Shown here one piece after another: positions 1,358 to 61,788 of a stretch of DNA of 64,000 nt; position 1 is the first letter of the stretch; each line of letters opens with the position of its first letter. A program made the translations under genes and the position numbers. The notes beneath the pieces were generated by a model that searched no databases, had not been told where the DNA came from, and saw only the letters and a list, made by a program, of their open reading frames with translations. The stretch comes from Cyclonatronum proteinivorum (GTDB lineage: Bacteria; Bacteroidota; Rhodothermia; Balneolales; Cyclonatronaceae): NCBI RefSeq assembly GCF_003353065.1, contig NZ_CP027806.1:372001-436000 (forward strand), written 5' to 3'.

Positions 1358-1444
1358 TACAGCAAGTCAAATCAAATCAAATCAATAAAAAAGGGAACCC
1401 AGTCAGGCTTGTTTGTTTGGGTCTCAGCATGAAGGAATCATTCC

Positions 1445-1676
1445 TAACCCGCATTATTCACCAAGAAATTTTCTTGCTGGCAAGGCGAATCTGAAAACTG
1501 AGCGGAAGGGTACCTAAGTACCCTGAGCATGAGTTTTCAGATTCAACGCCGCCAGCGGGGAAATTTCGCAGTCTTTACACCACACTCAAATTTGGGCTAC
1601 CGGTTTTTTTTAGCTAAGCCTAATGTAACTCATACTTAGCAAATAAATCCTGTTTAACTGTGAATAATGCGGGTTA
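1445..1676 (+). mobile_element. MITE-like palindromic element, copy A
   Basis: This is a full-length copy of the TA-flanked element. It starts TA then ACCCGCATTATTCAC and ends with the inverse of that 15-mer followed by TA. The core from about 1466 to 1568 folds into one long imperfect hairpin with the near-palindrome GGGTACCTAAGTACCC at its tip. The stem here reads AATCTGAAAACT against AGTTTTCAGATT. It encodes no protein. It fills most of the 457-nt gap between the divergent PAS gene and the HD gene; the rest (1358-1444 and 1677-1814) shows nothing I can name beyond AT-rich promoter-like sequence near 1680-1710. Confidence 0.85.
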
Positions 1677-6422: not shown

Positions 6423-8153
6423 GTGTGCACGCTGATGACCGATGCAAATCCGCCCTTTTCAATGAAGCCCGTTTCTGTTTGCTCCGCTGTCTCCGGCAAG
6501 ACGGTTCCGCCGGAACTCCCTTTATCAGCCCGTCCGGCAGTACTTATCAGCCGGTGGGCTTTTCTTTTTTTGTGGTGTTTGGGGGTGATGGCTTTGCAGC
6601 TCGTACCCGCGGTATCAGTCGTAGCGCAGTCCGCCGGACAAACAGAACGAATCCTCGAAATCAAGCAAAGCGGCAATTATCATTGGGGGGAGGCTTTTCA
6701 CGAAAACCGGGAACAGGCCCTAAGCCTTGCGCGGCAGGATCTGATTGAGCGGATTGTCGTTTTTGTCACTTCGGAATCGGAAGTGCGGGTCAGTGAAAAC
6801 GATGAAGCGTTTCGCTCTGAAGTAATGATGCGTAACCGCAGCATCAGCCGCATGGAGCTGCGTGGCGCCGGACACATCGAAGTGCAGCGGCGCGACGGCA
6901 GCTGGCGCACAACGGCCTACATCAGCCGGGAAGATTTCGCACGAACCCTCGACATCGAAGCCGGTCGTATACGTACAGCCCTTTCGCAGGCGCAAACCAT
7001 GGAAAGTCTGGGCAATATCAACGGTGCGATGGCCATTTGGATGGATGTGCTCGCTGCCGCAAGCTTTTTTCCGGAGCCTGTTTTTGTCAGTGCTTCAGCA
7101 ACTGGTCCGGATTCGGATAATCAGGTCGAAGCAGGCTTCATCAGCCGGGAGCGTATCCTGCACTGGTTAAATGCCGCAGATATCAGCGTGCGTGACGTGC
7201 GCAACCAAAGCGCAGGCGAAAACATCGAAATGTATCTCGATCTGGAAATTCGCTTTGGCAATCAGCCCGCTGAGCTGATTGAAGCCGCTCTCGACCGGCG
7301 CGACACCGCACTGCATACAGTCGCCGGGGGCTTTACGTCAGTTTATGTGGATCAGCCGCGAAGCAATGCCCGTGAAACCCTAACGCTTCGGCTGATGCCA
7401 TCAGCGGGCAGCGGCATGAATGAAGAAGCCGCACTTGTGCTGGAGCGCATCCGCCCGGTGAGCCGGCGAAGTGTTTCTGTTGACTGGCGCCCGGCCCTTC
7501 CCATTGATATTGAAACCGTGGCCCTGAGCGGCGGAAGGGTACGCCTCATTCCGCACACGCCCAACCTGAGCGTTTTCAACCTGCGGTGGAACATAGACGG
7601 TCGCAGTACTTCAGAAACAACACCGGTTGTGACTTTTCAGCCGGGCTCAGATGTGGCGGAAGTCAGCCTGCGCCTTAATAACAATGAACAGCTCAGCGTG
7701 CAGAAAAGCATACATCGAAGCGGTCGCATAACGGCCGTTTCAGGACGGCAGCAGCCCCGCCCCGGGTTGCGCGATACCCAAACTTCAACACGGAACCCCT
7801 GGCGGGCTTCAGACACCCCCCCGTCTGAAAGCCCGTCTGCCGCAGACGCAGCCGTAACATCGGTGCTTGATGAGTTGCTCCGTATCCGCATTGGCGATCA
7901 GCTAATCACACACCTTAACAGGCTGCAGGAAGAAGGCCGGCTACTCGTCGGCAACCGCGGCGACATGCCTGAAGCTGCACAGAGTTATGTTGCGGTGATC
8001 AACCCCGTAAACCGCCGCGTTGAAGCCGTGCTGAGTCCGGCCCATAACGGCCTGCGCACCCGCCTCCCCGGTACCACAAGCTTCACCGAAAACGAAATCC
8101 CCGAACGCTTCCGCAACATGGGCACCGTTTGGTTTTACTTCACCGAACCCTGA
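6423..8153 (+). CDS. Exported LPP20-like protein of unknown function
   Basis: The product has 576 residues; an ATG at 6462 is an equally good start. A hydrophobic segment near 43-66 followed by VAQSAG looks like a signal peptide, so it should be periplasmic or envelope-bound. Residues 78-185 (GNYHWGEAFHENREQALSLA to TAYISREDF) resemble the LPP20/FlgT N-terminal fold, in which an amphipathic helix is followed by strands. The middle, about 190-460, is unrecognised and beta-rich; the end (about 480-576) is a compact domain containing LLVGNRGDMPEAAQSYV. It is followed by another exported protein on the same strand, which suggests a two-gene unit. Confidence 0.65.
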   Translation: MCTLMTDANPPFSMKPVSVCSAVSGKTVPPELPLSARPAVLISRWAFLFLWCLGVMALQLVPAVSVVAQSAGQTERILEIKQSGNYHWGEAFHENREQALSLARQDLIERIVVFVTSESEVRVSENDEAFRSEVMMRNRSISRMELRGAGHIEVQRRDGSWRTTAYISREDFARTLDIEAGRIRTALSQAQTMESLGNINGAMAIWMDVLAAASFFPEPVFVSASATGPDSDNQVEAGFISRERILHWLNAADISVRDVRNQSAGENIEMYLDLEIRFGNQPAELIEAALDRRDTALHTVAGGFTSVYVDQPRSNARETLTLRLMPSAGSGMNEEAALVLERIRPVSRRSVSVDWRPALPIDIETVALSGGRVRLIPHTPNLSVFNLRWNIDGRSTSETTPVVTFQPGSDVAEVSLRLNNNEQLSVQKSIHRSGRITAVSGRQQPRPGLRDTQTSTRNPWRASDTPPSESPSAADAAVTSVLDELLRIRIGDQLITHLNRLQEEGRLLVGNRGDMPEAAQSYVAVINPVNRRVEAVLSPAHNGLRTRLPGTTSFTENEIPERFRNMGTVWFYFTEP

Positions 8154-8230
8154 TGCAGGCAATGAGTAATTTACCTGCAAGGTCAGCTGTTAAAACAAAA
8201 CCTTATTTTCTTCCCTATTCTTTCAGCAAC

Positions 8231-9259
8231 ATGTCTTCTTCCATCCGGCTCCGGCACCTTCCTTTACACGTGACATCCATCCGTACGCTTGTTTTCTTTT
8301 TGTTTTTGGGGATGATGGTTTTCCAGCCCATAACGCAGGTTCTTGCGGCATCCGATGACTCAGCCGATCCACCCACTGAGATACGGGTAAATGTGGCGGA
8401 TTTTACCGATTCTGTCTTTCGGGCTGTGGTGGAGCGCAATGCGACAGCATTCCTTACGGAAATAAACCGGGCGTACAGCTTACAGCGCCGGCCAAACTTC
8501 GGGGCTGAAACAAGCGGTACTTTCGACGCGGTCGGTATGGGCCGGCTTTGGAGCGTGAGTCCGTTTTACGTGTATGATGACATCATCATTGAGCAGCTCG
8601 CCCGTCGTTCTGACGGCAGCTGGGAGATGCGGAACCTGCCGCTGATGCTGCGTGATGCTGACGGTGCCGAACACTACGAAGAAGGGGTGCTCGAATTTGA
8701 AGCCGACGGGCAGGTACGCGGCCTGCGTCTTGCCCTGCCCGCACACCGCTATCAGGAGCTCATCCGCGCTGCCGACAGCAGTGTCGATCATGAAAACCGG
8801 ATGATGATCATCAGTTTTCTGGAGATTTTCAGGACGGCCTTCAATCAGAAGGACATCACTTTTATAGAGCAGGTGTTCAGCGATGAGGCGCTCATCATTG
8901 TTGGGCGGGTCGTAGAAAATACAGGTCGCAGTTCCGAGTATGAGCAGCAGGTCGAATTCCTGCGCTTCAACAAAGAAGAATACATCAGCCGCCTGCGCAA
9001 TGTGTTTGCCCGTAACGCCTGGATTGATGTGGGTTTCGAAGAAATCGACATCTTCCGTCATCCGCGGCACCCGCACATGTACGGCGTTTCCCTGGTGCAG
9101 TTTTACAACTCCGAAATTTATTCCGATGTCGGCTATCTGTTCCTTCTTATTGATTTTAGTGCGGATGAAGAACCCCTGATTCATGTCCGTACCTGGCAGC
9201 CCAAGCAGGCAACCCCGGAAAGTAACCGCTTCAGTATGGGCGATATCGAGGTTTTTTAG
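8231..9259 (+). CDS. Exported NTF2-like protein of unknown function
   Basis: I start at the ATG at 8231 (342 residues), since an upstream in-frame ATG at 8129 would overlap the previous gene. A signal peptide spans roughly residues 16-40 (FFLFLGMMVFQ to QVLAAS). The C-terminal half from FLEIFRTAFNQKDITFIEQV onward reads as an NTF2/SnoaL-like cone fold, with a beta-rich N-terminal domain before it. I do not recognise a catalytic residue set. It starts 78 nt after the LPP20-like gene and is likely co-expressed with it, perhaps as an envelope pair. Confidence 0.65.
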   Translation: MSSSIRLRHLPLHVTSIRTLVFFLFLGMMVFQPITQVLAASDDSADPPTEIRVNVADFTDSVFRAVVERNATAFLTEINRAYSLQRRPNFGAETSGTFDAVGMGRLWSVSPFYVYDDIIIEQLARRSDGSWEMRNLPLMLRDADGAEHYEEGVLEFEADGQVRGLRLALPAHRYQELIRAADSSVDHENRMMIISFLEIFRTAFNQKDITFIEQVFSDEALIIVGRVVENTGRSSEYEQQVEFLRFNKEEYISRLRNVFARNAWIDVGFEEIDIFRHPRHPHMYGVSLVQFYNSEIYSDVGYLFLLIDFSADEEPLIHVRTWQPKQATPESNRFSMGDIEVF

Positions 9260-9545
9260 ATGGAGGGCTGATACTATGGCATCAGCTTGTTTGTCTCAAC
9301 ACTAAGCAGGGTGTAGGCAGGTAGCCGGTGCCCGCGCCTTCCTGTTCGGGTGTCTCCGACGGACACATCATGCCTGATTTGCTCGACGGCGGTCGGCGGA
9401 CCGCAGACGGCAGACCGCGGGGGGCTTCCAGGCATTTAAGGGCGTCAGTGTTTTTTGCCGAGAAGAGTGAGAAGGGGGGTTGCGTGGGTTTGGGATTTGG
9501 GTGGATGCCGGAAAGTATCGAGCCGACTCGTAACCCATGATCCGG
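9260..9545. other. Non-coding stretch before repeat R1
   Basis: No credible gene. Short low-complexity pieces such as GGCGGACCGCAGACGGCAGA (9395-9414) and a G-rich tract near 9475 are visible. Reading frames on either strand here have biased, unconserved composition. Confidence 0.5.
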
Positions 9546-9885
9546 TAAAAAGCCCCGGCGGGGCGGCATATCACAGCCCGGGGTGCTAACCCTGCGGTCA
9601 GTCAGGAAATGCCCACACATAAAAAGAGCTCTGAAAGAGCGGCATACCATCGATGCCTGAATCTGATTTTGGGCGTTGGTCTGACATCGGAGGTATGCAG
9701 CCCCTTCAGGGCTTTGTTTGGGGGTGTGCGGTAATCACAGGGTTGGCACCCTGTGCTTGGGTATGTCGCCCTTTCAGGGCTTTTTTGTTTATGAGTGAGA
9801 ATGGCAAGGGCGATAAAGCCAAACAGAATCTTTTGATTCACGAGCTATTATCGTGACCAAACCGGACGTGCCCTGTAGGGGCACC
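9546..9885 (+). repeat. 340-bp direct repeat R1, left copy
   Basis: This 340-bp block recurs at 11302-11641 in the same orientation with only scattered substitutions. It is a chain of small palindromes: AGCCCCGGCGGGGC, CAGCCCGGGGTGC, GCCCCTTCAGGGC, CAGGGTTGGCACCCTG, GCCCTTTCAGGGC and CCCTGTAGGGG. Palindromes of this style are widely dispersed in Bacteroidota genomes. The two copies bracket the DUF4143 ATPase gene. The bases 9886-9981 between this copy and the ATPase stop hold further short GTGC/GCAC inversions and no gene. Confidence 0.85.
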
Positions 9886-9981
9886 CGGTGGGTAGAAACC
9901 GGGAAACGCCCCAAAATAAGAGCGTGCCGTAGGTACGCCCTGTGCATTCAGGTGCACATCAGGAATCCGATGTTTTCAAAC

Positions 9982-11187
9982 TCAGCCGAAATATTCCCGA
10001 CAGGGCACAGCAATGGCCGTCAGTCCATCTTGTTCAAACCGGTCGTGCTGATTCAGGGTGATGATGTGGCCTTCCTGCAAGCCAAAAAACCGGAGGGCTT
10101 CAAAAAGGCCATTCAGCTCCCGCTCAAGATTATCAGCCGTCAGCTTCAGACAAACCTGCATCACCTCCGCAGGCTGACCTTTTTCAAGCGCGATAAAATC
10201 ACACTCACCTTTTTTCCTGAAATAGGCGATTTCCTTGTACCGGCGCCTCAGAAACAGAAACACAAGATTTTCAAACAGCGGACCCAAATCAGACGTGAAT
10301 GACTTTGAGTTGACCTGTACGAGTCCGGTATCAATCGCATACACTTTCCGCGGGTTGACGTTTTGTTTCTTAACCGAATAGCTGAATTTGGGCACAAAGA
10401 AAAAGAGCCATGATTGCTCCAAATGGGAAAAATACTCCATCATCGTACTTGTTGCGCTGATGCCGATTTGTGACTTGAGCTTGTTCGCGCTCACCAGTCT
10501 GCCCGTGTTCGATACCAGGAAAAGGGCAAGCCGCTGCAGCGATTTCACATCCCGAATGCCGTAGCGCACGGCGATATCCCGGATCAAAATGTCATCAAAC
10601 AACTGATGCAGCACATCGTCATTTCCGCTTTTGAGATATTCCGGGAACCCGCCCTGATGCATGTAGTCCTGAAACATTGCATCCGATGGAGGCTGATTCC
10701 TGAATCGCAGGAACTCCTGCCATGAAAAAGGGAACAGTTCCGTGCTCAGATGCCTGCCGGTCAGCCGGGAGCCCAGTTCCTGACTCAGTAGGGAAGCGTT
10801 AGACCCTGTGACGATCAGCTTACAACCCTCATCAAGCTTCTGACGCACATACAGCTCCCAGCCTTCCACGACCTGTATCTCATCAAAAAAGTGCACCTTT
10901 TGTCCGGATTCCTGCAGCAGATCATCGAGCCGCGAAAAATCCCGGAGGTCGAATCCGTACAAGCGGGGATCTTCAAAATTCAGAAAAAAAGCATCCGCAT
11001 AATCCCCGCGCAGCAGCTGATGCATGAGCGTACTTTTCCCGCACCGGCGGATGCCTGAGATAATCAGGGCATGCGTATTGGGTTGGGGCAGCCGGTGCAG
11101 GGCGTCTCGCGCGAGCCCCGTTTCACGGTCCCGTAAATTCTCCCGCTGCGCAGCCGCGACCTCTGCGATGGTTGTTTTGGCAATCAT
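9982..11187 (-). CDS. AAA_14/DUF4143 ATP-binding protein
   Basis: A 401-residue ATPase. Walker A is GIRRCGKST (45-53), Walker B is VHFFDEIQ (Asp102-Glu103), a sensor-like VTGSN follows near 125-129, and the C-terminal DUF4143 domain has a GECDFIA...AEVMQV stretch like a degraded PD-(D/E)xK nuclease fold. Proteins of this family are common, variable accessory genes in bacteria and archaea; their role is not settled. The start at 11187 follows an AT-rich region with a long dyad. The gene is bracketed by 340-bp direct repeats, which would allow its loss or gain by recombination. Confidence 0.85.
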   Translation of the reverse strand: MIAKTTIAEVAAAQRENLRDRETGLARDALHRLPQPNTHALIISGIRRCGKSTLMHQLLRGDYADAFFLNFEDPRLYGFDLRDFSRLDDLLQESGQKVHFFDEIQVVEGWELYVRQKLDEGCKLIVTGSNASLLSQELGSRLTGRHLSTELFPFSWQEFLRFRNQPPSDAMFQDYMHQGGFPEYLKSGNDDVLHQLFDDILIRDIAVRYGIRDVKSLQRLALFLVSNTGRLVSANKLKSQIGISATSTMMEYFSHLEQSWLFFFVPKFSYSVKKQNVNPRKVYAIDTGLVQVNSKSFTSDLGPLFENLVFLFLRRRYKEIAYFRKKGECDFIALEKGQPAEVMQVCLKLTADNLERELNGLFEALRFFGLQEGHIITLNQHDRFEQDGLTAIAVPCREYFG

Positions 11188-11221
11188 GTCGTTTAGTTAT
11201 TTGTTGCTAAACTACAATTTA

Positions 11222-11261
11222 GTTTGATATTAACAAACAATAATGTTGTTTACTATCAAAC
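11222..11261. promoter_or_regulatory. 40-bp dyad upstream of the ATPase gene
   Basis: The sequence is symmetric about 11241.5: GTTTGATA at 11222-11229 faces TATCAAAC at 11254-11261, and 16 of 20 base pairs match across the whole span. It lies 35-74 nt upstream of the ATPase ATG in a strongly AT-rich patch (11190-11275) unlike its surroundings. This is the right place for an operator or promoter overlap. The rest of the 11188-11301 gap shows nothing else. Confidence 0.5.
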
Positions 11262-11301
11262 AAATTTTGATTTGTTCTTGCGGGATCACCATTTCATCAT
11301 G

Positions 11302-11641
11302 TAAAAAGCCCCGGCGGGGCGGCATATCACAGCCCAGGGTGCCAACCCTGCGGTCAGTCAGGAAATGCCCACACATAAAAAGAGCTCTGAAAGAACGGCA
11401 TATCATCGGTGCCTAAATCTGGTTTTGGGCGTTGTTCCGGTATCGGAGATATGCCGCCCCTTCAGGGCTTTGTTTGAGGGCTTGCGGTAATCACAGGGTT
11501 GGCACCCTGTGCTTGGGTATGTCGCCCTTTCGGGGCTTTTTTGTTTATGAGTGAGAATGGCAAGGGCGATAAAGCCAAACAGAATCTTTTGATTTATGAG
11601 CTATTATCGTGACCAAACCCGTCGTGCCCTGTAGGGGCACC
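11302..11641 (+). repeat. 340-bp direct repeat R1, right copy
   Basis: Second copy of the 340-bp block at 9546-9885. It is cut exactly at 11641/11642 by the left end of the IS4-family element: the left copy continues with CGGTGGGTAG after GGGGCACC, while here the IS begins. Confidence 0.85.
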
Positions 11642-11652
11642 CTGGAGTTTGG

Positions 11653-13008
11653 CTAAGTTCTGATGCTAATCATGGCCGATAAAGCCGGGTTTAGCAGTTT
11701 TAGGTGGTTCTGCTTTCGGTACCTTTTGTTCATGAAGCCGTCAAAACTCACCCCTATGGCTTTGCTGTAGTATTCCGCCCTGAAGCGGTTACAAATGTCT
11801 CCTGTCGTCCACCTGCTGTTTTCTTTCTCGGGGTACCACTTGGCACGTTGCAGCATTTGGACCGGTGGATCATTCTGCCTGCTGCAGTGTTCAGCGGCAA
11901 GCAGTAACAGACTGTACACCGCTGTAACAAACTTAGGTACACCTTCGGCGGAGTGCTGGTTGCGCACCTGTGCCTGCCCGCAGCCCATCAGGGTTTTCTG
12001 CTCTCGAAAGTTGACTTCAATCTCCCAGCGCCAAACATAAGCCTGAAGCAGGGTTTGCAGCGGTAACTTCAGGTCATTGGTTATCAGAAAGGCGGGTTTA
12101 CGGTACAACAGGTTCGCCCCTTTAGCCAAGCGGTACCCAAGAGGACTGATAATAATAAGCTTGAGTAGCTGGTGCCCGCCCGCAGGCTTCCACTTAACGT
12201 TTTCTACTACCTTTAATTTAAACTCGTGCTCCTTGCCTGCCGCGAAAGCTTTGACCTTCTGCCAGCTTACCTGATCACTGGTACGAATCTGGTCCGGAGT
12301 TAACTTAGGCTCCCCGTACAAGCGCCGCCGCCCTGTGTCAGGCTGGTCAGCAGGTGGATCATAGATTTTAGCGTCTTTGCGGACCCTGCCGATGAAGGTT
12401 GTATGCGCCGGCAAGTTTTGGATTACTTCGCGATTGGTATACCCCCCATCAAAACTTACAAGCAGGTGACGTGAGGCTGATCCCAACTCGTTGAGGCGCT
12501 GGCGCAATGAACCCACCAGCTTTGCGCCAACACAGCTTATCCTGCTTTTCTTTTTAGCTTCTTTGTAAGCGTCCTTTTGCAGCTGATCCGCATTACGGCC
12601 GGGTTTAACCGGCATGGGCGCATGGACAAAACTCACCGGTATACTCCGTGCCTGACAAAGCTGCGAAGAGGCCGGGCAGGCGATACTGGCCTGTACAAAG
12701 CGCTGTGCCCAGATAAAATTGGTGTGGAAAGCGGGTCCAAGCGGGTCTCGCTGCCATTTCGCACCATGTACTTTGCGTCCTGTTTTTTTCAGCAGGGTAT
12801 CGTCGATATGGGCAATGACCGGAGCGTTGTCAGGCGCCAGGCTGACATCCAGCAGGTCCTGCGGGTCAAAGCGCTGCTTGCTGAACATCCGGTAAGCGGC
12901 CGTCCAGTCACAGAACTGGTTGCCGCTACCGCTCAGCATGCCTGTGAGCGTGCGCTTACCGCCACAATTAACCAGACCGTAGGCAAGATCGTGTACCAGT
13001 CTTTGCAT
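11653..13008 (-). CDS. IS4-family DDE transposase
   Basis: A 451-residue transposase from the ATG at 13008. The DDE triad is Asp69 or Asp70 (AHIDDTLLKK), Asp187 (SFDGGYTN) and Glu331; the last lies in the IS4 signature Y324-x2-R327-x3-E331-x6-K338. The reading frame extends 5' of this ATG without a stop to TAA at 13090-13092, adding in-frame coding-like residues (LTSQFDSLLHE) but no ATG, GTG or TTG. The preceding AbrB-like gene ends in the +1 frame across a nine-A run, so the transposase may be made partly as a -1 frameshift fusion. It ends with TAG in the terminal repeat. Confidence 0.88.
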   Translation of the reverse strand: MQRLVHDLAYGLVNCGGKRTLTGMLSGSGNQFCDWTAAYRMFSKQRFDPQDLLDVSLAPDNAPVIAHIDDTLLKKTGRKVHGAKWQRDPLGPAFHTNFIWAQRFVQASIACPASSQLCQARSIPVSFVHAPMPVKPGRNADQLQKDAYKEAKKKSRISCVGAKLVGSLRQRLNELGSASRHLLVSFDGGYTNREVIQNLPAHTTFIGRVRKDAKIYDPPADQPDTGRRRLYGEPKLTPDQIRTSDQVSWQKVKAFAAGKEHEFKLKVVENVKWKPAGGHQLLKLIIISPLGYRLAKGANLLYRKPAFLITNDLKLPLQTLLQAYVWRWEIEVNFREQKTLMGCGQAQVRNQHSAEGVPKFVTAVYSLLLLAAEHCSRQNDPPVQMLQRAKWYPEKENSRWTTGDICNRFRAEYYSKAIGVSFDGFMNKRYRKQNHLKLLNPALSAMISIRT

Positions 13009-13064
13009 TTTGGGCGTCAGTTTACTGTGAGTGGATTCGTGGAGCAGGCTGTCAAACTGGCTTG

Positions 13065-13271
13065 TCAGCGCGTTTGAGGCAGTTTTTTTTTAAGGCTGCT
13101 GACGAGTTTGGCGTCGCGCTTAAGAACCATATGCTGCTGGTCATCGATGATCCATTCGATGGTTTCGCCTTTTTGGAATTCCATAGCTTCAGCCACGGCG
13201 GCAGGCATATTGACATACCACTGCTGGCTGGCTTTGCGGTCGATGCGTTGAATTTTGGTAGGATAGCCCAT
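13065..13271 (-). CDS. AbrB/SpoVT-like small DNA-binding protein in the IS
   Basis: A 68-residue protein with the swapped-hairpin AbrB/MazE pattern: IQRIDRKASQQWYVNMP, an EAMEF helix, FQKGETIEW and a VLKR strand. Such proteins bind DNA as dimers. It lies inside the insertion sequence just before the transposase. The coding sequence crosses A9 at 13083-13091 (codons CTT AAA AAA AAA CTG) and stops 8 codons later at 13065. A backward slip of one base on the A run would enter the transposase frame. It may control transposase level or bring end binding to the transposase. Confidence 0.7.
   Translation of the reverse strand: MGYPTKIQRIDRKASQQWYVNMPAAVAEAMEFQKGETIEWIIDDQQHMVLKRDAKLVSSLKKKLPQTR
13083..13091 (-). 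promoter_or_regulatory. Nine-A slippery run, candidate -1 frameshift site
   Basis: On the coding strand the bases are CTT AAA AAA AAA CTG in the AbrB frame. The -1 frame reads AAA AAA ACT GCC TCA and runs on, open, into the transposase. Runs such as A AAA AAA are standard slippery sites in insertion sequences. The -1 frame has a TAA directly before the run, so frameshifting is the only way to translate the 27 codons upstream of Met1 unless CTG is used as a start. Confidence 0.5.
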
Positions 13272-13403
13272 ATGCGGTAGGATTTAAGAATAATCTAGTG
13301 ATATAACTAGGTAATAATATCCTAAAAAATCCGGTCATATGCATCATAGACCGGGATTTTTTTTACGAAAAACTCAAAAATACAAGCAAAAGCCAAACTC
13401 CAG

Positions 13404-13573
13404 AGGGTACCTAAGTACCCTGAGCATGAGTTTTAAGCTTCAACGCAGCCAGCGGGGAAATTTCGCCGTCTTTACACCATACTCAAATTTGGGCTACCGG
13501 TGTATTTCACTAAGCCAAATTTAAATATACATTTAGCAAATAAATCTTGTTTAATTGTGAATAATGCGGGTTA
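13404..13573 (+). mobile_element. MITE-like palindromic element, copy B (left part lost to the IS)
   Basis: Only the right 168 bp plus TA remain. It begins at AGGGTACCTAAGTACCC, the hairpin tip, directly at the IS right end, and ends with GTGAATAATGCGGGT followed by TA. The left arm and left end are missing. The final TTA (13571-13573) is the complement of the stop codon of the neighbouring glutamate dehydrogenase gene. The remaining bases 13272-13403 belong to the IS right end and hold no gene. Confidence 0.85.
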
Positions 13574-14974
13574 TGGGAAGATTCCCATGCGCTCGTACAC
13601 CATGCCAACCTTTTTGATGGCACTGATGAAAGCTGCTGTGCGCAAATCGGTATCATGAAATTTACGCAGCTCGTTAATTTCGTTGTAGGCGGTAATCATG
13701 GTGTCCTCCAGTCCGGAGTCAACGAGATCGTACTCATTGGCCCCGTGCGCAAGTTTACCGATCTCCTCATCCGAAAGATTGCGGTTCGTCATGTTCTGCA
13801 TGACATCGAGCAACCTGCGGCTGGCATTTTCCTCAAACCTTCGGTCCATTCTGCCAAACCGTACGTGCGAGAGATTTTTGAGCCACTCGAAATAGGATAC
13901 CGTAACACCTCCTGCATTCAGGTAATTATCGGGGATAATAAGTGCGCCCCGGTCTTTAATGATATCATGTGCCTGCTGTGTTGTTGGTCCGTTTGCGGCC
14001 TCAGCAATAATTTTGGCTTTAATCCGCGGGGCATTTTCACCGTTAATCTGCCCTTCGAGTGCAGCCGGCACCAGAATGTCGCACTCCAGCTCGATGGCCG
14101 CACGGCTGTCGCTGATCAGGGTTCCCCCCGGGTAAGTTGTGATGGTTTTATGCTCTTTGCGGTGATTATCAAGCGCGATAATATCGATACCGTCTTCATT
14201 GTAAATGGCGCCATCCCATTCACAAACAGCGATAATTTTCGCGTCGGCTTCCATCAGGTATTTAACAGAATGGAAGCCCACGTTGCCAAACCCCTGCACG
14301 ATTACACGCTTGCCGGCAAGACCGGTGGTGAGTCCGAGTGCCTGCATGTCTTCTTTGTTTTCGCAGGCTTCCCGCACGCCAAAAAATACGCCGCGGCCAG
14401 TCGCTTCGGTTCTGCCGCGGATACCTCCCAAACCAACGGGCTTACCGGTAACGCAGCCCTCTGCATTCAGTGAAGGGTTGACCGCTTTGTAGGTATCCAC
14501 AATCCAGGCCATCTCCTGCTCTCCGGTACCGTAATCGGGGGCCGGGACATCAATATCAGGGCCGATAAAGTTTTTGCTCACCAGCTCAAAGGTAAAACGC
14601 CGGGTGATACGCTCCAGCTCCGCGGATGAGTAGTTCTTGCGGTCTATTTTAACCCCGCCTTTGGCACCGCCAAACGGCACATCCACAACCGCACACTTGT
14701 AGGTCATTAGGGCGGCAAGCGCTTTAACCTCATCTTCATTCACCATCATACTGTAGCGAATCCCCCCTTTGGTAGGCAGCTTATGATGGCTGTGTTCTGC
14801 CCGCCATGCGTGAATGGTTTCAATTGAGCCATTATCGCGTTTGAGCGGGAAAGTGAAATGGCATACCGTGTTACAACCTTTGATCTGTTCCAACAGACCA
14901 TCGGTGAACCTGACATATTTCGCAGCACGATCGAAATTCAGGTTCACCTGTTCAAAAAAACGTAAGTTTTCCAT
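13571..14974 (-). CDS. gdhA: Glutamate dehydrogenase
   Basis: A 467-residue Glu/Leu/Phe/Val dehydrogenase. The substrate lysines are Lys69 ([10 protein letters not shown]) and Lys93, the catalytic lysine is Lys105 ([10 protein letters not shown]) and the conserved Asp147 sits in [10 protein letters not shown]. The Rossmann motif is GFGNVG at 228-233. It interconverts glutamate with 2-oxoglutarate and ammonia; the family and length fit GDH, and cofactor preference cannot be read with confidence. It ends in MGIFP, the usual C-terminus. Its TAA stop is formed by the TA target plus the first base of MITE-like copy B. Confidence 0.92.
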
Positions 14975-19815: not shown

Positions 19816-19922
19816 GGATTGTTCCGGCATTGACCTGAATTGCACCGCATTTTTTGAGATGAAGCCTTCAGCTGAATAAGCTGCAGGCTTTATTCGTTTT
19901 TGGCAATTGGATTGCCTGTTCT

Positions 19923-20182
19923 TAGCCCGCATTATTCACAATTTAACAGGATTTATTCGCTAAATCTTTGTTTAAATATGGCTTAGTGAAAAACACCGGT
20001 AGCCCAAGTTTGAGTGTGGTGTAAAGACGGCGCACCGAGCGAAGCGATTCCCACGAAGTGAAATTTCCCCGCTGGCTGCGTTGAAGCTGAAAACTCATGC
20101 TCAGGGTACTTAGGTACCCTTCCGCTGAGTTTTCAGCTTCGCCTTGCCAGCAAGAAAATTTCTTGGTGAATAATGCGGGTTA
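19923..20182 (-). mobile_element. MITE-like palindromic element, copy C (with 28-bp extra block)
   Basis: Full copy in reverse orientation with TA on both sides and both 15-bp ends. It is 260 bp rather than 232 because about 28 bp (near 20030-20057, GCACCGAGCGAAGCGATTCC and following) are added beside the base of the large hairpin. Its stem reads GAAGCTGAAAACTCA against TGAGTTTTCAGCTTC. It lies in the 723-nt gap between the Rrf2 gene and the transporter. The rest of the gap (20183-20538) shows no gene; an AT-rich stretch at 20430-20460 may hold the transporter promoter. Confidence 0.85.
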
Positions 20183-20538
20183 GCATTGCTGCTACCAATA
20201 AGTAGCCATTACCGGGCTGTTTATCGCGTGCCCCGCAAAAGAACCAGCCCGATATTGGATGATTGGCAGCGGGTTGTTTCATTTTAGGCAGAAGCCTGTG
20301 AAGCATACTCCTAAATCAGTATGCTTCATACTCAACCGTGTCAGCCCGGTAAGGTTGTAAGTGAATGGTTGGGGCTAAGCTGTATAAAAAAGGTAAAATA
20401 GGGGTTGCCTGGAATCGCTTTTTATGGGTATAATCAAAACCGAATATTCAAATTAAAATATTTGCTGTTTAGCCACAGTGCTAAGGGTCCTGTTTGAGAC
20501 AGGCTGCAGTTATCCTTCATTTTTACATTACCAACAAT

Positions 20539-23218: not shown

Positions 23219-23240
23219 TCAGAAGCATAGAAGCATACCT

Positions 23241-23472
23241 TAGCCCGCATTATTTACAATTAAACAGGTTTTATTTGCTAAACGTAAGTTTAAGTTTGGC
23301 TTAGCGAAAAACACCAGTAGCTCAAATTTGAGTATGGTGTAAAGACTGCGAAATTTTCCCGCTGGCGGCGTTGAAGCTATAAACTCATGCTCAGGGTACT
23401 TAGGTACCCTTCCGCTGAGTTTATAGCTTCGCCTTGCCAGCAAAAAAATTTCTTGGTGAATAATGCGGGTTA
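23241..23472 (-). mobile_element. MITE-like palindromic element, copy D
   Basis: Full 232-bp copy in reverse orientation, TA on both sides, 15-bp ends with one change (TTTAC for TTCAC) at the left. The stem reads GAAGCTATAAACTC against GAGTTTATAGCTTC: two adjacent pairs differ from the other copies on both arms at once, keeping the pairing. Confidence 0.85.
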
Positions 23473-23480
23473 GAAAACCG

Positions 23481-26742: not shown

Positions 26743-26824
26743 AAGCCGTAAACGCATTACCGTGTTTTGAACAGCATATTTTTTAGAGCTGAAATGGGTC
26801 GGGCTGAAAGCACTGTTTCCATCA

Positions 26825-26912
26825 CCCAAAAGCAAGGGACCTGTCTTAGGCTTGGGGGCCCGGAACCTGCCCCAGAAGACCTTGATGTTCACGGAGTTTT
26901 CCCAAAAAAATA
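26825..26912 (-). repeat. Dispersed 90-bp repeat R2, copy 3
   Basis: From CCCAAAAGCAAGGGACCTGT through TGATGTTCACGGAGTTTTCC to the A run. With copy 2 it makes an inverted pair in the 635-nt gap between the DUF885 gene and the broken kinase. Bases 26501-26654 and 26913-27135 hold no gene; a small hairpin GGTGC-ATTTTTTC-GCACC lies near 27103-27122. Confidence 0.7.
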
Positions 26913-27135
26913 AACAAACCGCATTACCGGCAAGCAAGCCGGGTGCAGGGCAACACCTTATTTACAAGCTGTTTCGTAAAAGGTACTTGCGGTAGCCCGA
27001 TTGCCGGACGGACATAGCGTGAAAAGGGCTGATGTTCCCATCAAATATTAATAAATTGATAGTTTAAGCTAAGATATTATTCGTCCTTACTATCATTACC
27101 TGATGGTGCATTTTTTCGCACCCTAGTTTTTTGTC

Positions 27136-40523: not shown

Positions 40524-40730
40524 TGTTTTATCACTGTATAAAAGGTCTGATTTGTGAACTAAAGAAAATAGGTTATTTGCGCAAAACATCATCTCGCTTG
40601 CGCTCTGAAAAAAGCCATATAGAAGACTCATTTTGGGGTCTCCAGCTTATTCACTGAGGTTGCTCTGTGTTTTTGCTGTTCCGGGATTACATCGGTTATT
40701 CGAAGAGGGTGGAAAGCTTTGATGTGTATC

Positions 40731-40819
40731 CAAAAAAGCAAGGGACCTATCTTTGGTTTGGGGTTTCTGATCTGCCACGAAAGACCTTGATGTTCACGGA
40801 GTTTTACCCAAAAAATAAA
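40731..40819 (-). repeat. Dispersed 90-bp repeat R2, copy 4
   Basis: From CCAAAAAAGCAAGGGACCTA to TGATGTTCACGGAGTTTTAC and the A run. It lies between the divergent XRE and TPMT genes. Confidence 0.75.
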
Positions 40820-50167: not shown

Positions 50168-50235
50168 GGGTTCCTAAACCACTTGAGCGGAGAAATCGTT
50201 ATGTGTTGAGGATCAACAGCATAGCGTATTCCGGT

Positions 50236-50327
50236 ACCAAAAAGCAAGGGATTCAAATTATGATTTGGGAACGCTAATCTGCCACGAAAGACCGTGATGT
50301 TCACGGAGTTTCCCCCCAAAAAAAATA
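50236..50327 (-). repeat. Dispersed 90-bp repeat R2, copy 6
   Basis: From ACCAAAAAGCAAGGGATTCA to CCGTGATGTTCACGGAGTTT and the A run. The core CCGTGATGTTCACGG is a perfect palindrome around a 3-nt centre. It fills most of the 344-nt gap between lipB and the alanine-dehydrogenase-like gene; nothing else is seen there. Confidence 0.75.
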
Positions 50328-61466: not shown

Positions 61467-61788
61467 GTTTTTTTTGGGGAAAACCCCGTGAACATCACGG
61501 TCTTTCGCAGAAGATCAGCGCCCCCAAACCTAACCCGCATTATTCACCAAGAAATTTTCTTGCTGGCAAGGCGAAGCTGAAAACTCAGCGGAAGGGTACC
61601 TAAGTACCCTGAGCATGAGTTTTCAGCTTCAACGCAGCCAGCGGGGAAATTTCGCAGTCTTTACACCACACTCAAATCCGGGCCGCCAGTGTCTTTCGCT
61701 AAGCCAAATTTAAACTTACATTTAGCAAATAAATACTGTTTGATTGTGAATAATGCGGGCTAAGATAGGTCCCTTGCTTTTTGGTTTG
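61467..61788 (+). repeat. Dispersed repeat R2, copy 7, split by MITE-like copy E
   Basis: The left part 61467-61530 runs from TTTTTTTTGGGGAAAACCCC through CCGTGAACATCACGG (perfect palindrome) to CCCCCAAACC; the right part 61763-61788 continues AGATAGGTCCCTTGCTTTTT. The break at TA equals the place where copies 2 and 1 read CCTAAGAT without interruption. The full gap 61446-61823 holds this and copy E only. Confidence 0.8.
61531..61762 (+). mobile_element. MITE-like palindromic element, copy E
   Basis: Full 232-bp copy in forward orientation: TA then ACCCGCATTATTCAC at 61531, mirrored at the right as GTGAATAATGCGGGC then TA. The stem reads AAGCTGAAAACTCA against TGAGTTTTCAGCTT. It interrupts repeat R2; the TA at each side is a duplicated target. 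Confidence 0.88.

What the first reader, a model, noticed from the sequence alone, without database searches (positions are those of the whole stretch)
9546..11641. DUF4143 ATPase enclosed by 340-bp direct repeats
Two nearly identical 340-bp blocks in the same orientation flank only this gene and its AT-rich promoter. This is a cassette that recombination can delete or duplicate. DUF4143 ATPases are frequent in variable parts of genomes, and pairing with strings of small palindromes may be a general rule worth testing.
Basis: partly seen in the sequence, partly recalled or inferred. Interest (0 to 1): 0.55.

Follow-up and report, generated by a model that had tools for sequence, protein, structure and literature searches.

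The report
Hairpin mobile repeats beside defence-candidate gene
The two repeats around this gene look like small hairpin-forming mobile DNA elements, built from a motif catalogued until now as an RNA of unknown function; the same motif sits beside a little-studied family of single-strand DNA transposases in several bacterial phyla, and the gene between the repeats is probably a bystander.

Summary
Observation confirmed: two direct repeats of about 340 bp (R1a 9547-9893, R1b 11303-11642, 319/340 identical) bracket one AAA_14/DUF4143 ATPase gene. The interpretation changes. Each R1 is an inverted pair of a two-hairpin unit matching Rfam's orphan "Acido-Lenti-1 RNA" (RF01687). The genome has 57 unit matches, including 8 inverted doublets spaced 177-185 nt. 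A transposase gene with the TnpA-Y1 subclass 1.2 motif, a class reported to lack IS features, is flanked by such units. The link is wide: of 80 transposase loci chosen by protein alone, 65 have a unit within 300 bp (4.1/kb beside the gene, about 0.05/kb beyond 1 kb), in about ten phyla. Stem mismatches show little G.U preference, as expected for DNA hairpins. So R1 is best read as a REPIN-type element of a REP/transposase pairing that the papers I could search do not mention. The DUF4143 link is not general: 0 of 30 unit loci (29 in other genomes) carry it nearby, and orthologues in 10 other genomes have no R1 in the flanks examined. R1b is a mosaic: from 11491 on it equals the 488-kb locus plus its IS. 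So R1 copies have recombined, but a DUF4143 cassette is not supported.

The parts
9547..9893 (.). R1a: REPIN-like doublet (9547-9785) plus a palindromic tail of about 105 nt
9547..9600 (-). Acido-Lenti-1 unit, left half of R1a (small hairpin outermost)
   Evidence: model R1 52.4 bits, E 5.7e-10; RF01687 34.5 bits, under the cut-off of 37
9732..9785 (+). Acido-Lenti-1 unit, right half of R1a
   Evidence: RF01687 at 9736-9781, 45.3 bits, cut-off 37; model R1 60.7 bits
9982..11187 (-). AAA_14/DUF4143 ATPase, 401 aa; match to PADLOC candidate PDC-S01 over residues 26-392
11188..11264 (-). AT-rich upstream region of the ATPase gene; DNA similarity with orthologues reaches to about here
11303..11642 (.). 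R1b: second REPIN-like doublet with tail; mosaic with a junction at about 11491
11303..11356 (-). Acido-Lenti-1 unit, left half of R1b
   Evidence: RF01687 at 11307-11352, 38.8 bits; model R1 57.7 bits
11488..11541 (+). Acido-Lenti-1 unit, right half of R1b; the mosaic junction lies at its start
   Evidence: RF01687 at 11492-11537, 41.5 bits
11643..13403 (-). IS701/IS4-like insertion sequence (transposase 11653-13008) at the foot of the R1b tail palindrome
   Evidence: copies of 98.7-99.8% at four other places fetched; families (NCBIfam IS701 models below their cut-offs)

Best explanation
R1 is a REPIN-type miniature element. Two Acido-Lenti-1 units stand in inverted order around a spacer: small hairpin B outside, then a linker, then the larger hairpin A. 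This is the layout of the ends of a TnpA-Y1 subclass 1.2 locus (B-A-tnpA-A-B). Shown: the anatomy, the multi-copy state, the flanking of such tnpA genes by the same kind of unit in about ten phyla, and a recombinant R1b. Inferred: TnpA binds the hairpins in single-stranded DNA, cuts near the linker or foot, and copies or moves units in trans, as is published for TnpA-REP and REPs. The DUF4143 gene is a bystander: a roaming phage-defence candidate that now lies between two REPINs. Its right border was rebuilt by recombination or gene conversion between R1b and a truncated R1 with an IS at 488.7 kb.
For: RF01687 matches in R1. 57 matches in the genome at E 0.01 or better, 49 over the cut-off (150 of 1058 candidates were scored); 8 -/+ doublets spaced 177-185 nt. 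A Y1 transposase gene (C1:2323755) lies between unit clusters. 100 Y1 loci: 1.74 units/kb within 150 bp of the ORF, 0.03/kb at 1-1.5 kb, none beyond. 80 loci picked by protein alone: 65 with a unit within 300 bp; nearest left unit minus in 46 of 56, nearest right unit plus in 40 of 48. Outside Bacteroidota proper: 25 of 37 loci, 3.14/kb within 150 bp against 0.026/kb beyond 1 kb. Rfam's own model finds units by a Y1 gene in 10 of 34 genomes (lists, read by eye) and in 5 of 20 cross-phylum loci. Unit and TnpA similarity correlate (45 loci, Spearman 0.466, 0 of 2000 permutations). Stems covary; G.T 44 and A.C 52 of 1764 stem cells against 15 and 0 of 187 in 9 tRNAs. Y1_Tnp occurs in 32 of 33 genomes with units and 14 of 20 without. 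R1b mosaic. The doublet at C1:362 kb lies in a 746-bp interval that is 96 bp in G005.
Against: No transposition was observed and no cleavage site is known. The copy number is low for REPs. The canonical GT[AG]G foot is absent. 15 of 80 loci have no unit within 300 bp, and 70 of 100 loci of the phylum sample have none within 500 bp at E 0.01, so the unit goes with part of the subclass only. Most units of this genome are not doublets; many lie at the ends of a mosaic repeat of roughly 400-700 bp. In the small alignment A1 G.T is commoner than A.C (10 against 5 of 324). G001 has no RF01687 match at E 1e-6, yet model R1 finds units beside one of its Y1 genes (L250), so absence by Rfam is not full absence. 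Insertion points could not be read because G005 is too diverged. The permutation test does not control for host relatedness.
Confidence: 0.82

Rival explanations
1. Acido-Lenti-1 is a real trans-acting or guide RNA of the transposase locus (as guide RNAs are for TnpB-type nucleases) and R1 pairs are RNA genes.
For: Rfam lists it as an sRNA gene; the stems covary; RNAs first known as orphans have turned out to belong to transposon-linked nucleases (start of the abstract of PMC11061315, listing).
Against: Units lie on both sides of tnpA, mostly in opposite orientation, and dispersed without it. Stem mismatches show no clear G.U preference (44 G.T, 52 A.C in A4; 10 and 5 in A1), unlike tRNAs (15 and 0). 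I did not search the loci for TnpB-like genes.
Confidence: 0.08
2. The R1 pair is a recombination cassette for the DUF4143 gene: direct repeats let the gene be lost, gained or amplified, and such genes recruit these palindromes.
For: Direct repeats of 340 bp; R1b is recombinant; 3 of 14 DUF4143 matches in this genome lie within 1.5 kb of a unit, 0.39 expected; the gene matches a defence-candidate family.
Against: 0 of 30 unit loci of the phylum sample carry DUF4143; no R1 by orthologues in 10 other genomes; no single-R1 state seen; orthologues change places without R1.
Confidence: 0.15
3. R1a and R1b are a plain local duplication with no element behind it.
For: R1a and R1b are each other's closest full-length relatives (94% against 84% for the 325-kb copy).
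Against: The unit structure, the other doublets with nearly the same spacing, the lack of similarity beyond the repeat edges and the mosaic with 488 kb fit dispersed elements better. A local duplication of one doublet remains possible for R1a/R1b.
Confidence: 0.12

Closest known systems
REPINs / REP doublets with RAYT (TnpA-REP) genes (PMC3116915, PMC6006769, PMC8266576)
   Same: Inverted doublets of palindromic units, dispersed, same units beside a low-copy Y1 HUH transposase gene
   Different: Transposase has the subclass 1.2 motif, not a class 2 one; unit has two hairpins and a conserved linker; no GT[AG]G foot; units of 54-90 nt against 20-40 bp REPs (abstract of PMC3733652)
Rfam RF01687 Acido-Lenti-1 RNA (PMC2864571, Table 1)
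   Same: Both R1 copies contain matches over the gathering score
   Different: Listed there as an RNA of Acidobacteria and Lentisphaerae; here it behaves as a DNA element tied to a transposase, in more phyla
TnpA-Y1 subclass 1.2 (PMC6006769, section 18)
   Same: Y---Q--HH motif in the tnpA beside the units (89 of 100 loci); low copy number
   Different: The paper gives it as generally without typical terminal IS200 structures and mostly in Cyanobacteria and Bacteroidetes; here units flank it and relatives occur in more phyla
IS200/IS605 elements (subclass 1.1)
   Same: Same fold by sequence: best PDB match ISHp608 transposase 2a6m, E 1.9e-16; NCBIfam names the proteins IS200/IS605 transposases
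   Different: Ends are mostly inverted copies, units are dispersed without the gene, the Y motif is that of subclass 1.2
PADLOC PDC-S01 (phage-defence candidate)
   Same: The gene between the repeats matches over residues 26-392, E 2.2e-108
   Different: A candidate family only; no defence function tested

Membership tests
REPIN (Bertels and Rainey) | Inverted doublet of palindromic units with spacer | tested here: met
   8 -/+ doublets with 177-185 nt spacing in this genome; DNA fold of R1a z -4.31
REPIN (Bertels and Rainey) | Same units flank a Y1 transposase gene | tested here: met
   65 of 80 loci within 300 bp; own genome L045
REPIN (Bertels and Rainey) | Most units occur as doublets | tested here: not met
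   8 doublets (16 of 57 matches) with the short -/+ spacing in this genome
Class 2 REP / TnpA-REP | GT[AG]G foot at the hairpin and class 2 Y motif (ending in NP) | tested here: not met
   Loose AT[TG]TC before hairpin B; Y---Q--HH
REPIN (Bertels and Rainey) | Moves as a unit | tested here: inconclusive
   Patchy distribution and one interval without the element in G005; no excision product seen
RF01687 Acido-Lenti-1 | Score over the gathering cut-off | tested here: met
   3 matches at 38.8-45.3 bits in the window; the fourth unit stays below
RF01687 Acido-Lenti-1 | Is transcribed and acts as RNA | not testable with these tools
   No expression data; mismatch pattern speaks against selection on RNA pairing
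TnpA-Y1 subclass 1.2 | Y---Q--HH motif | tested here: met
   L045 YILNQEEHH; 89 of 100 loci
TnpA-Y1 subclass 1.2 | Specific C-terminal domain profile | not tested
Integron gene cassettes (attC) | Integrase gene and attC-type sites | not tested
   Considered because hairpin repeats flank a gene; no integrase search was made
PADLOC PDC-S01 | Match to the PADLOC profiles | tested here: met
   PDLC04787 E 2.2e-108, residues 26-392

The most novel reading that the evidence does not exclude
Beyond REPINs: a directly repeated pair of these doublets could serve as the two ends of a composite single-stranded element, so that subclass 1.2 TnpA acting in trans moves or excises the segment between them, here a roaming phage-defence candidate.
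Probability: 0.06. Interest if true: 0.8.

Novelty: new variant of a known kind. Interest (0 to 1): 0.6.

Why it matters
It ties two orphans together: an Rfam 'RNA' family of unknown function, which a 2026 genome paper still reads as possibly regulatory (passage of PMC13298647), and a Y1 transposase subclass described as having no IS properties (PMC6006769, section 18). If right, RF01687 should be treated as a DNA element, and a further lineage of REP/transposase partnership becomes open to direct tests of binding and cleavage. It also replaces a DUF4143-cassette story by a testable one.

Tried and rejected
DUF4143-palindrome rule: tested with an HMM of 10 own DUF4143 proteins in 30 unit loci of the phylum sample (none), 100 Y1 loci (none) and 80 cross-phylum Y1 loci (one, L309, Kiritimatiellota). 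Cassette arrays: same-strand unit pairs 411-752 nt apart looked like gene cassettes, but the segments between them are related repeats with only short ORFs. Phage origin: blastn of 9400-11700 against the phage collection gave one partial match, inside the gene. Two other repeat families of the window (D2, D3): D3 copies lie within about 0.3-3 kb of two other Y1 genes but were not shown to abut them; not pursued. A strand bias of units was looked at by eye in the list only.

Limits: one search scored at most 15 candidates per genome, with strict filters, so its copy numbers are lower bounds. Of 34 genomes with units, 33 (all but the own) went into, with the first 20 listed of 360 without, all from one order. 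The 100 Y1 loci are 80 of the matches listed for genomes with units (fragments, low-scoring and unlisted matches left out) and 20 of the 36 that I had marked for genomes without. Three unit hits inside ORFs are not in the density bins. Model R1 was trained on 27 sequences: 25 of the 30 loci L103-L132 (L117, L120, L121, L123, L130 left out for convenience) and two of the window; at least six lie beside a Y1 gene. One search was given 20 of the 80 loci, most of them from outside Bacteroidota. One search was given 61 of 80 (chosen for having hits), and 150 of its 158 matches were aligned. The permutation test used 45 of 65 loci, one unit each, picked by me. The 80 loci are the best of 584 confirmed, so they lean to relatives of the query clade. 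ARAGORN, which made the tRNA control, itself prefers paired stems.

Full report
What is there. The two blocks are real: 9547-9893 and 11303-11642, same orientation, 319 of 340 positions identical. Between them lies one gene, an AAA_14/DUF4143 ATPase on the minus strand (9982-11187), which matches the PADLOC phage-defence candidate PDC-S01 over residues 26-392 (E 2.2e-108). No solved structure matches it by sequence at E 0.01. To the left is a gene with a Cds6_C match just under the cut-off (8129-9259), to the right a 1.76-kb IS (11643-13403) and then a glutamate dehydrogenase.

What R1 is. Rfam puts Acido-Lenti-1 (RF01687) matches over its cut-off in both copies. Each R1 is two such units in inverted order. 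A unit has a larger variable hairpin, a linker that reads roughly CTATNATATGTC, and a small GC hairpin at the outer edge. After the doublet comes a tail of about 105 nt with palindromes of its own. In the whole genome (4.29 Mb) 57 matches score E 0.01 or better, 49 over the cut-off; 150 of 1058 first-look candidates were scored. Eight -/+ doublets have spacing 177-185 nt. Same-strand units also lie 411-752 nt apart at the ends of a mosaic repeat. One 1.87-kb block that occurs at two places, 93.9% identical, begins 5 bp before a unit.

What goes with it. The genome has five Y1_Tnp matches. One, L045, sits between clusters of these units; direct repeats of about 440 bp, 89.6% identical, lie on its two sides (positions of the second copy converted by me). 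[quoted passage not shown] NCBIfam names the protein an IS200/IS605 transposase, and the REP transposase model stays under its cut-off.

Test 1, in the phylum. RF01687 was sought in 394 genomes; 34 have it at E 1e-6, in a patchy way. None of the 14 control genomes does, though 5 of the 14 have Y1_Tnp. Y1_Tnp was sought in 33 of the 34 and in 20 without units: 32 of 33 against 14 of 20 have it (Fisher 0.009). Reading the two capped lists by eye, 10 of 34 genomes, the own included, have a unit within 1 kb of a Y1 gene by Rfam's own model. I then took 100 Y1 loci with up to 2.5 kb on each side where the contig allows, 80 from genomes with units and 20 from genomes without. With my covariance model (27 sequences) the density of units at E below 0.01 is 1.74/kb within 150 bp of the ORF, then 0.76 (150-300), 0.44 (300-500), 0.07 (500-1000) and 0.03/kb (1-1.5 kb), and none beyond. 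30 of 100 loci have a unit within 500 bp, two of these among the 20 from genomes without RF01687 matches.

Test 2, across phyla, chosen by protein only. A scan with the TnpA alignment gave 80 named loci. 65 have a unit within 300 bp. Densities are 4.10 (0-150), 2.34, 0.47, 0.14, 0.06 and 0.04 per kb (2-3 kb). The nearest unit on the left is on the minus strand in 46 of 56 loci, on the right on the plus strand in 40 of 48; 30 of 80 have both. By record title (my own sorting), the positives are Bacteroidota with Ignavibacteria 41 of 44, Planctomycetota 7 of 14, Acidobacteriota 5 of 6, Verrucomicrobiota 5 of 8, Armatimonadota 1 of 2, and one of one each for Kiritimatiellota, Lentisphaerae, Hydrogenedentes, a Methylococcaceae, a Desulfovibrionales and another deltaproteobacterium. 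Outside Bacteroidota, with the Ignavibacteria record counted here, 25 of 37 loci have a unit within 300 bp, 3.14/kb within 150 bp against 0.026/kb beyond 1 kb; the model was trained on genomes of one phylum of the window's. Rfam's own model finds units in 5 of 20 of the loci given to it, at 0-0.7 kb from the gene. Unit likeness follows TnpA likeness (45 loci, Spearman 0.466, 0 of 2000 permutations; host relatedness not controlled).

DNA or RNA. The stems covary strongly. In 150 aligned units, non-Watson-Crick stem cells are about as often A.C (52) as G.T (44) of 1764; in the small alignment A1 it is 5 and 10 of 324. Nine tRNAs in the same material show 0 A.C and 15 G.T of 187. Selection on RNA pairing should spare G.T and not A.C, so the larger set fits hairpins of DNA; the alignment was fitted to the model, which may lean either way. 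Two hairpins at mostly inverted ends of an HUH-Y1 gene, whose best PDB relative is the ISHp608 transposase, point to TnpA as the binding partner. For class 2 REPs, cutting of single-stranded REPs by TnpA and a guide role of the tetranucleotide at the hairpin foot are published (passages of PMC8266576). That the linker plays this part here is my inference.

The site itself. In G005 (same genus; no RF01687 match and no Y1_Tnp, both at E 1e-6) the orthologue of the ATPase (89%) sits 27 kb from the orthologue of the left neighbour on the same contig, with other neighbours and no R1. In all 10 other genomes with orthologues no R1 or unit is found in the flanks held, 1.5 kb or less for five of them and up to about 9 kb for the others. 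Among these loci no pair shares a clear orthologous neighbour: one search shows only three weak pairs of flanking ORFs, namely ABC ATPases (26-28%, G004/G039), proteins that share a secretion sorting domain (49.5% over 101 aa, G004/G047) and a 38% pair (G053/G078) (domains); blastn adds a 260-bp match of 72% between G001 and G004, on opposite sides of the gene. In the closest pair (own/G005) DNA similarity stops at the stop codon and about 77 bp upstream, where an AT-rich array is alike in the orthologues. The gene thus changes places without R1. A doublet at C1:362.2 kb lies between two genes that are 746 bp apart here and 96 bp in G005, so it was gained here or lost there.

R1b is a mosaic. 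Up to 11490 it resembles R1a and the 325-kb copy. From 11491, the start of its right unit, it shows no difference to the truncated R1 at C1:488.7 kb up to its end (tail 98 of 98, against 94 of 98 for R1a), and the IS that follows differs by 2 mismatches and 1 gap in 1761. At 488 kb the IS has the tail palindrome on both sides; in the window it has the R1 palindrome on one side and that of another repeat family on the other. So the right border of the 'cassette' is a recombination or gene-conversion product.

DUF4143 and the repeats. In this genome 3 of 14 DUF4143 matches (13 over the cut-off) lie within 1.5 kb of a unit, 0.39 expected, 0.3% of rotations. The other two are a degenerate copy at 3697.8 kb and the one match under the cut-off, at 2558 kb. 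Elsewhere: 0 of 30 phylum-sample unit loci, 0 of 100 Y1 loci, 1 of 80. No general rule.

Literature. Searches for 'Acido-Lenti-1' (3 papers), 'RF01687' (2), RAYT/REPIN/Bacteroidetes, REP-associated tyrosine transposase terms, TnpAREP/subclass 1.2, and a misannotation query gave, in titles, starts of abstracts and the passages I opened, no paper that joins this motif to a transposase. I saw passages of PMC2864571, PMC13298647, PMC10059132, PMC3733652, PMC3116915 and PMC8266576, and sections 12 and 18 plus passages of PMC6006769; the rest only as listings. Subscription journals, preprints and supplements were not searched, so the link may be in print elsewhere.

Verdict. Observation confirmed; interpretation partly supported. 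R1 works like a REPIN; it is not a class 2 REP/RAYT system, since the foot and the Y motif differ. I file it as a new variant of a known kind.

Noticed in passing
window 11643-13403; C1:1603333-1605092, 325911-327688, 486947-488706, 3695568-3697344: An IS701/IS4-like element, 98.7-99.8% identical copies, at the feet of small palindromes; at 1603 kb and 488 kb the palindrome is present on both sides, as if duplicated on insertion.
   Followed up: partly
window 11188-11275: The AT-rich stretch upstream of the DUF4143 gene (TTGTTTG/AAACAA motifs) is alike in orthologues of other genera, like an operator that travels with the gene.
   Followed up: partly
L085 6759-12505 (G005 C41): Downstream of the left neighbour's orthologue G005 has another AAA_14 ATPase, a thioredoxin-like gene and then two DUF4143 ATPases; this genome has a DUF4143 remnant at C1:610.4 kb. 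It may be a hot spot for such genes.
   Followed up: partly
window 1441-1610, 13404-13584, 19913-20188, 23230-23476, 61529-61767: A second repeat family (D2), five copies or parts of copies in the window; one abuts the IS.
   Followed up: no
window 26817-26913, 40722-40818, 50229-50325: A third repeat family (D3, CAAAAAGCAAGGGA...), also seen near the doublet at C1:362 kb and within 0.3-3 kb of two other Y1 genes.
   Followed up: no
L343-L349 (C1:1.9-3.1 Mb): A mosaic intergenic repeat with Acido-Lenti-1 units at its ends, about a dozen segments of 365-1332 nt between units; its short ORFs look spurious.
   Followed up: partly
L309 1037-2221 and 3153-4043: In a Kiritimatiellota record a unit-flanked Y1 gene stands between two DUF4143-type ORFs.
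   Followed up: no
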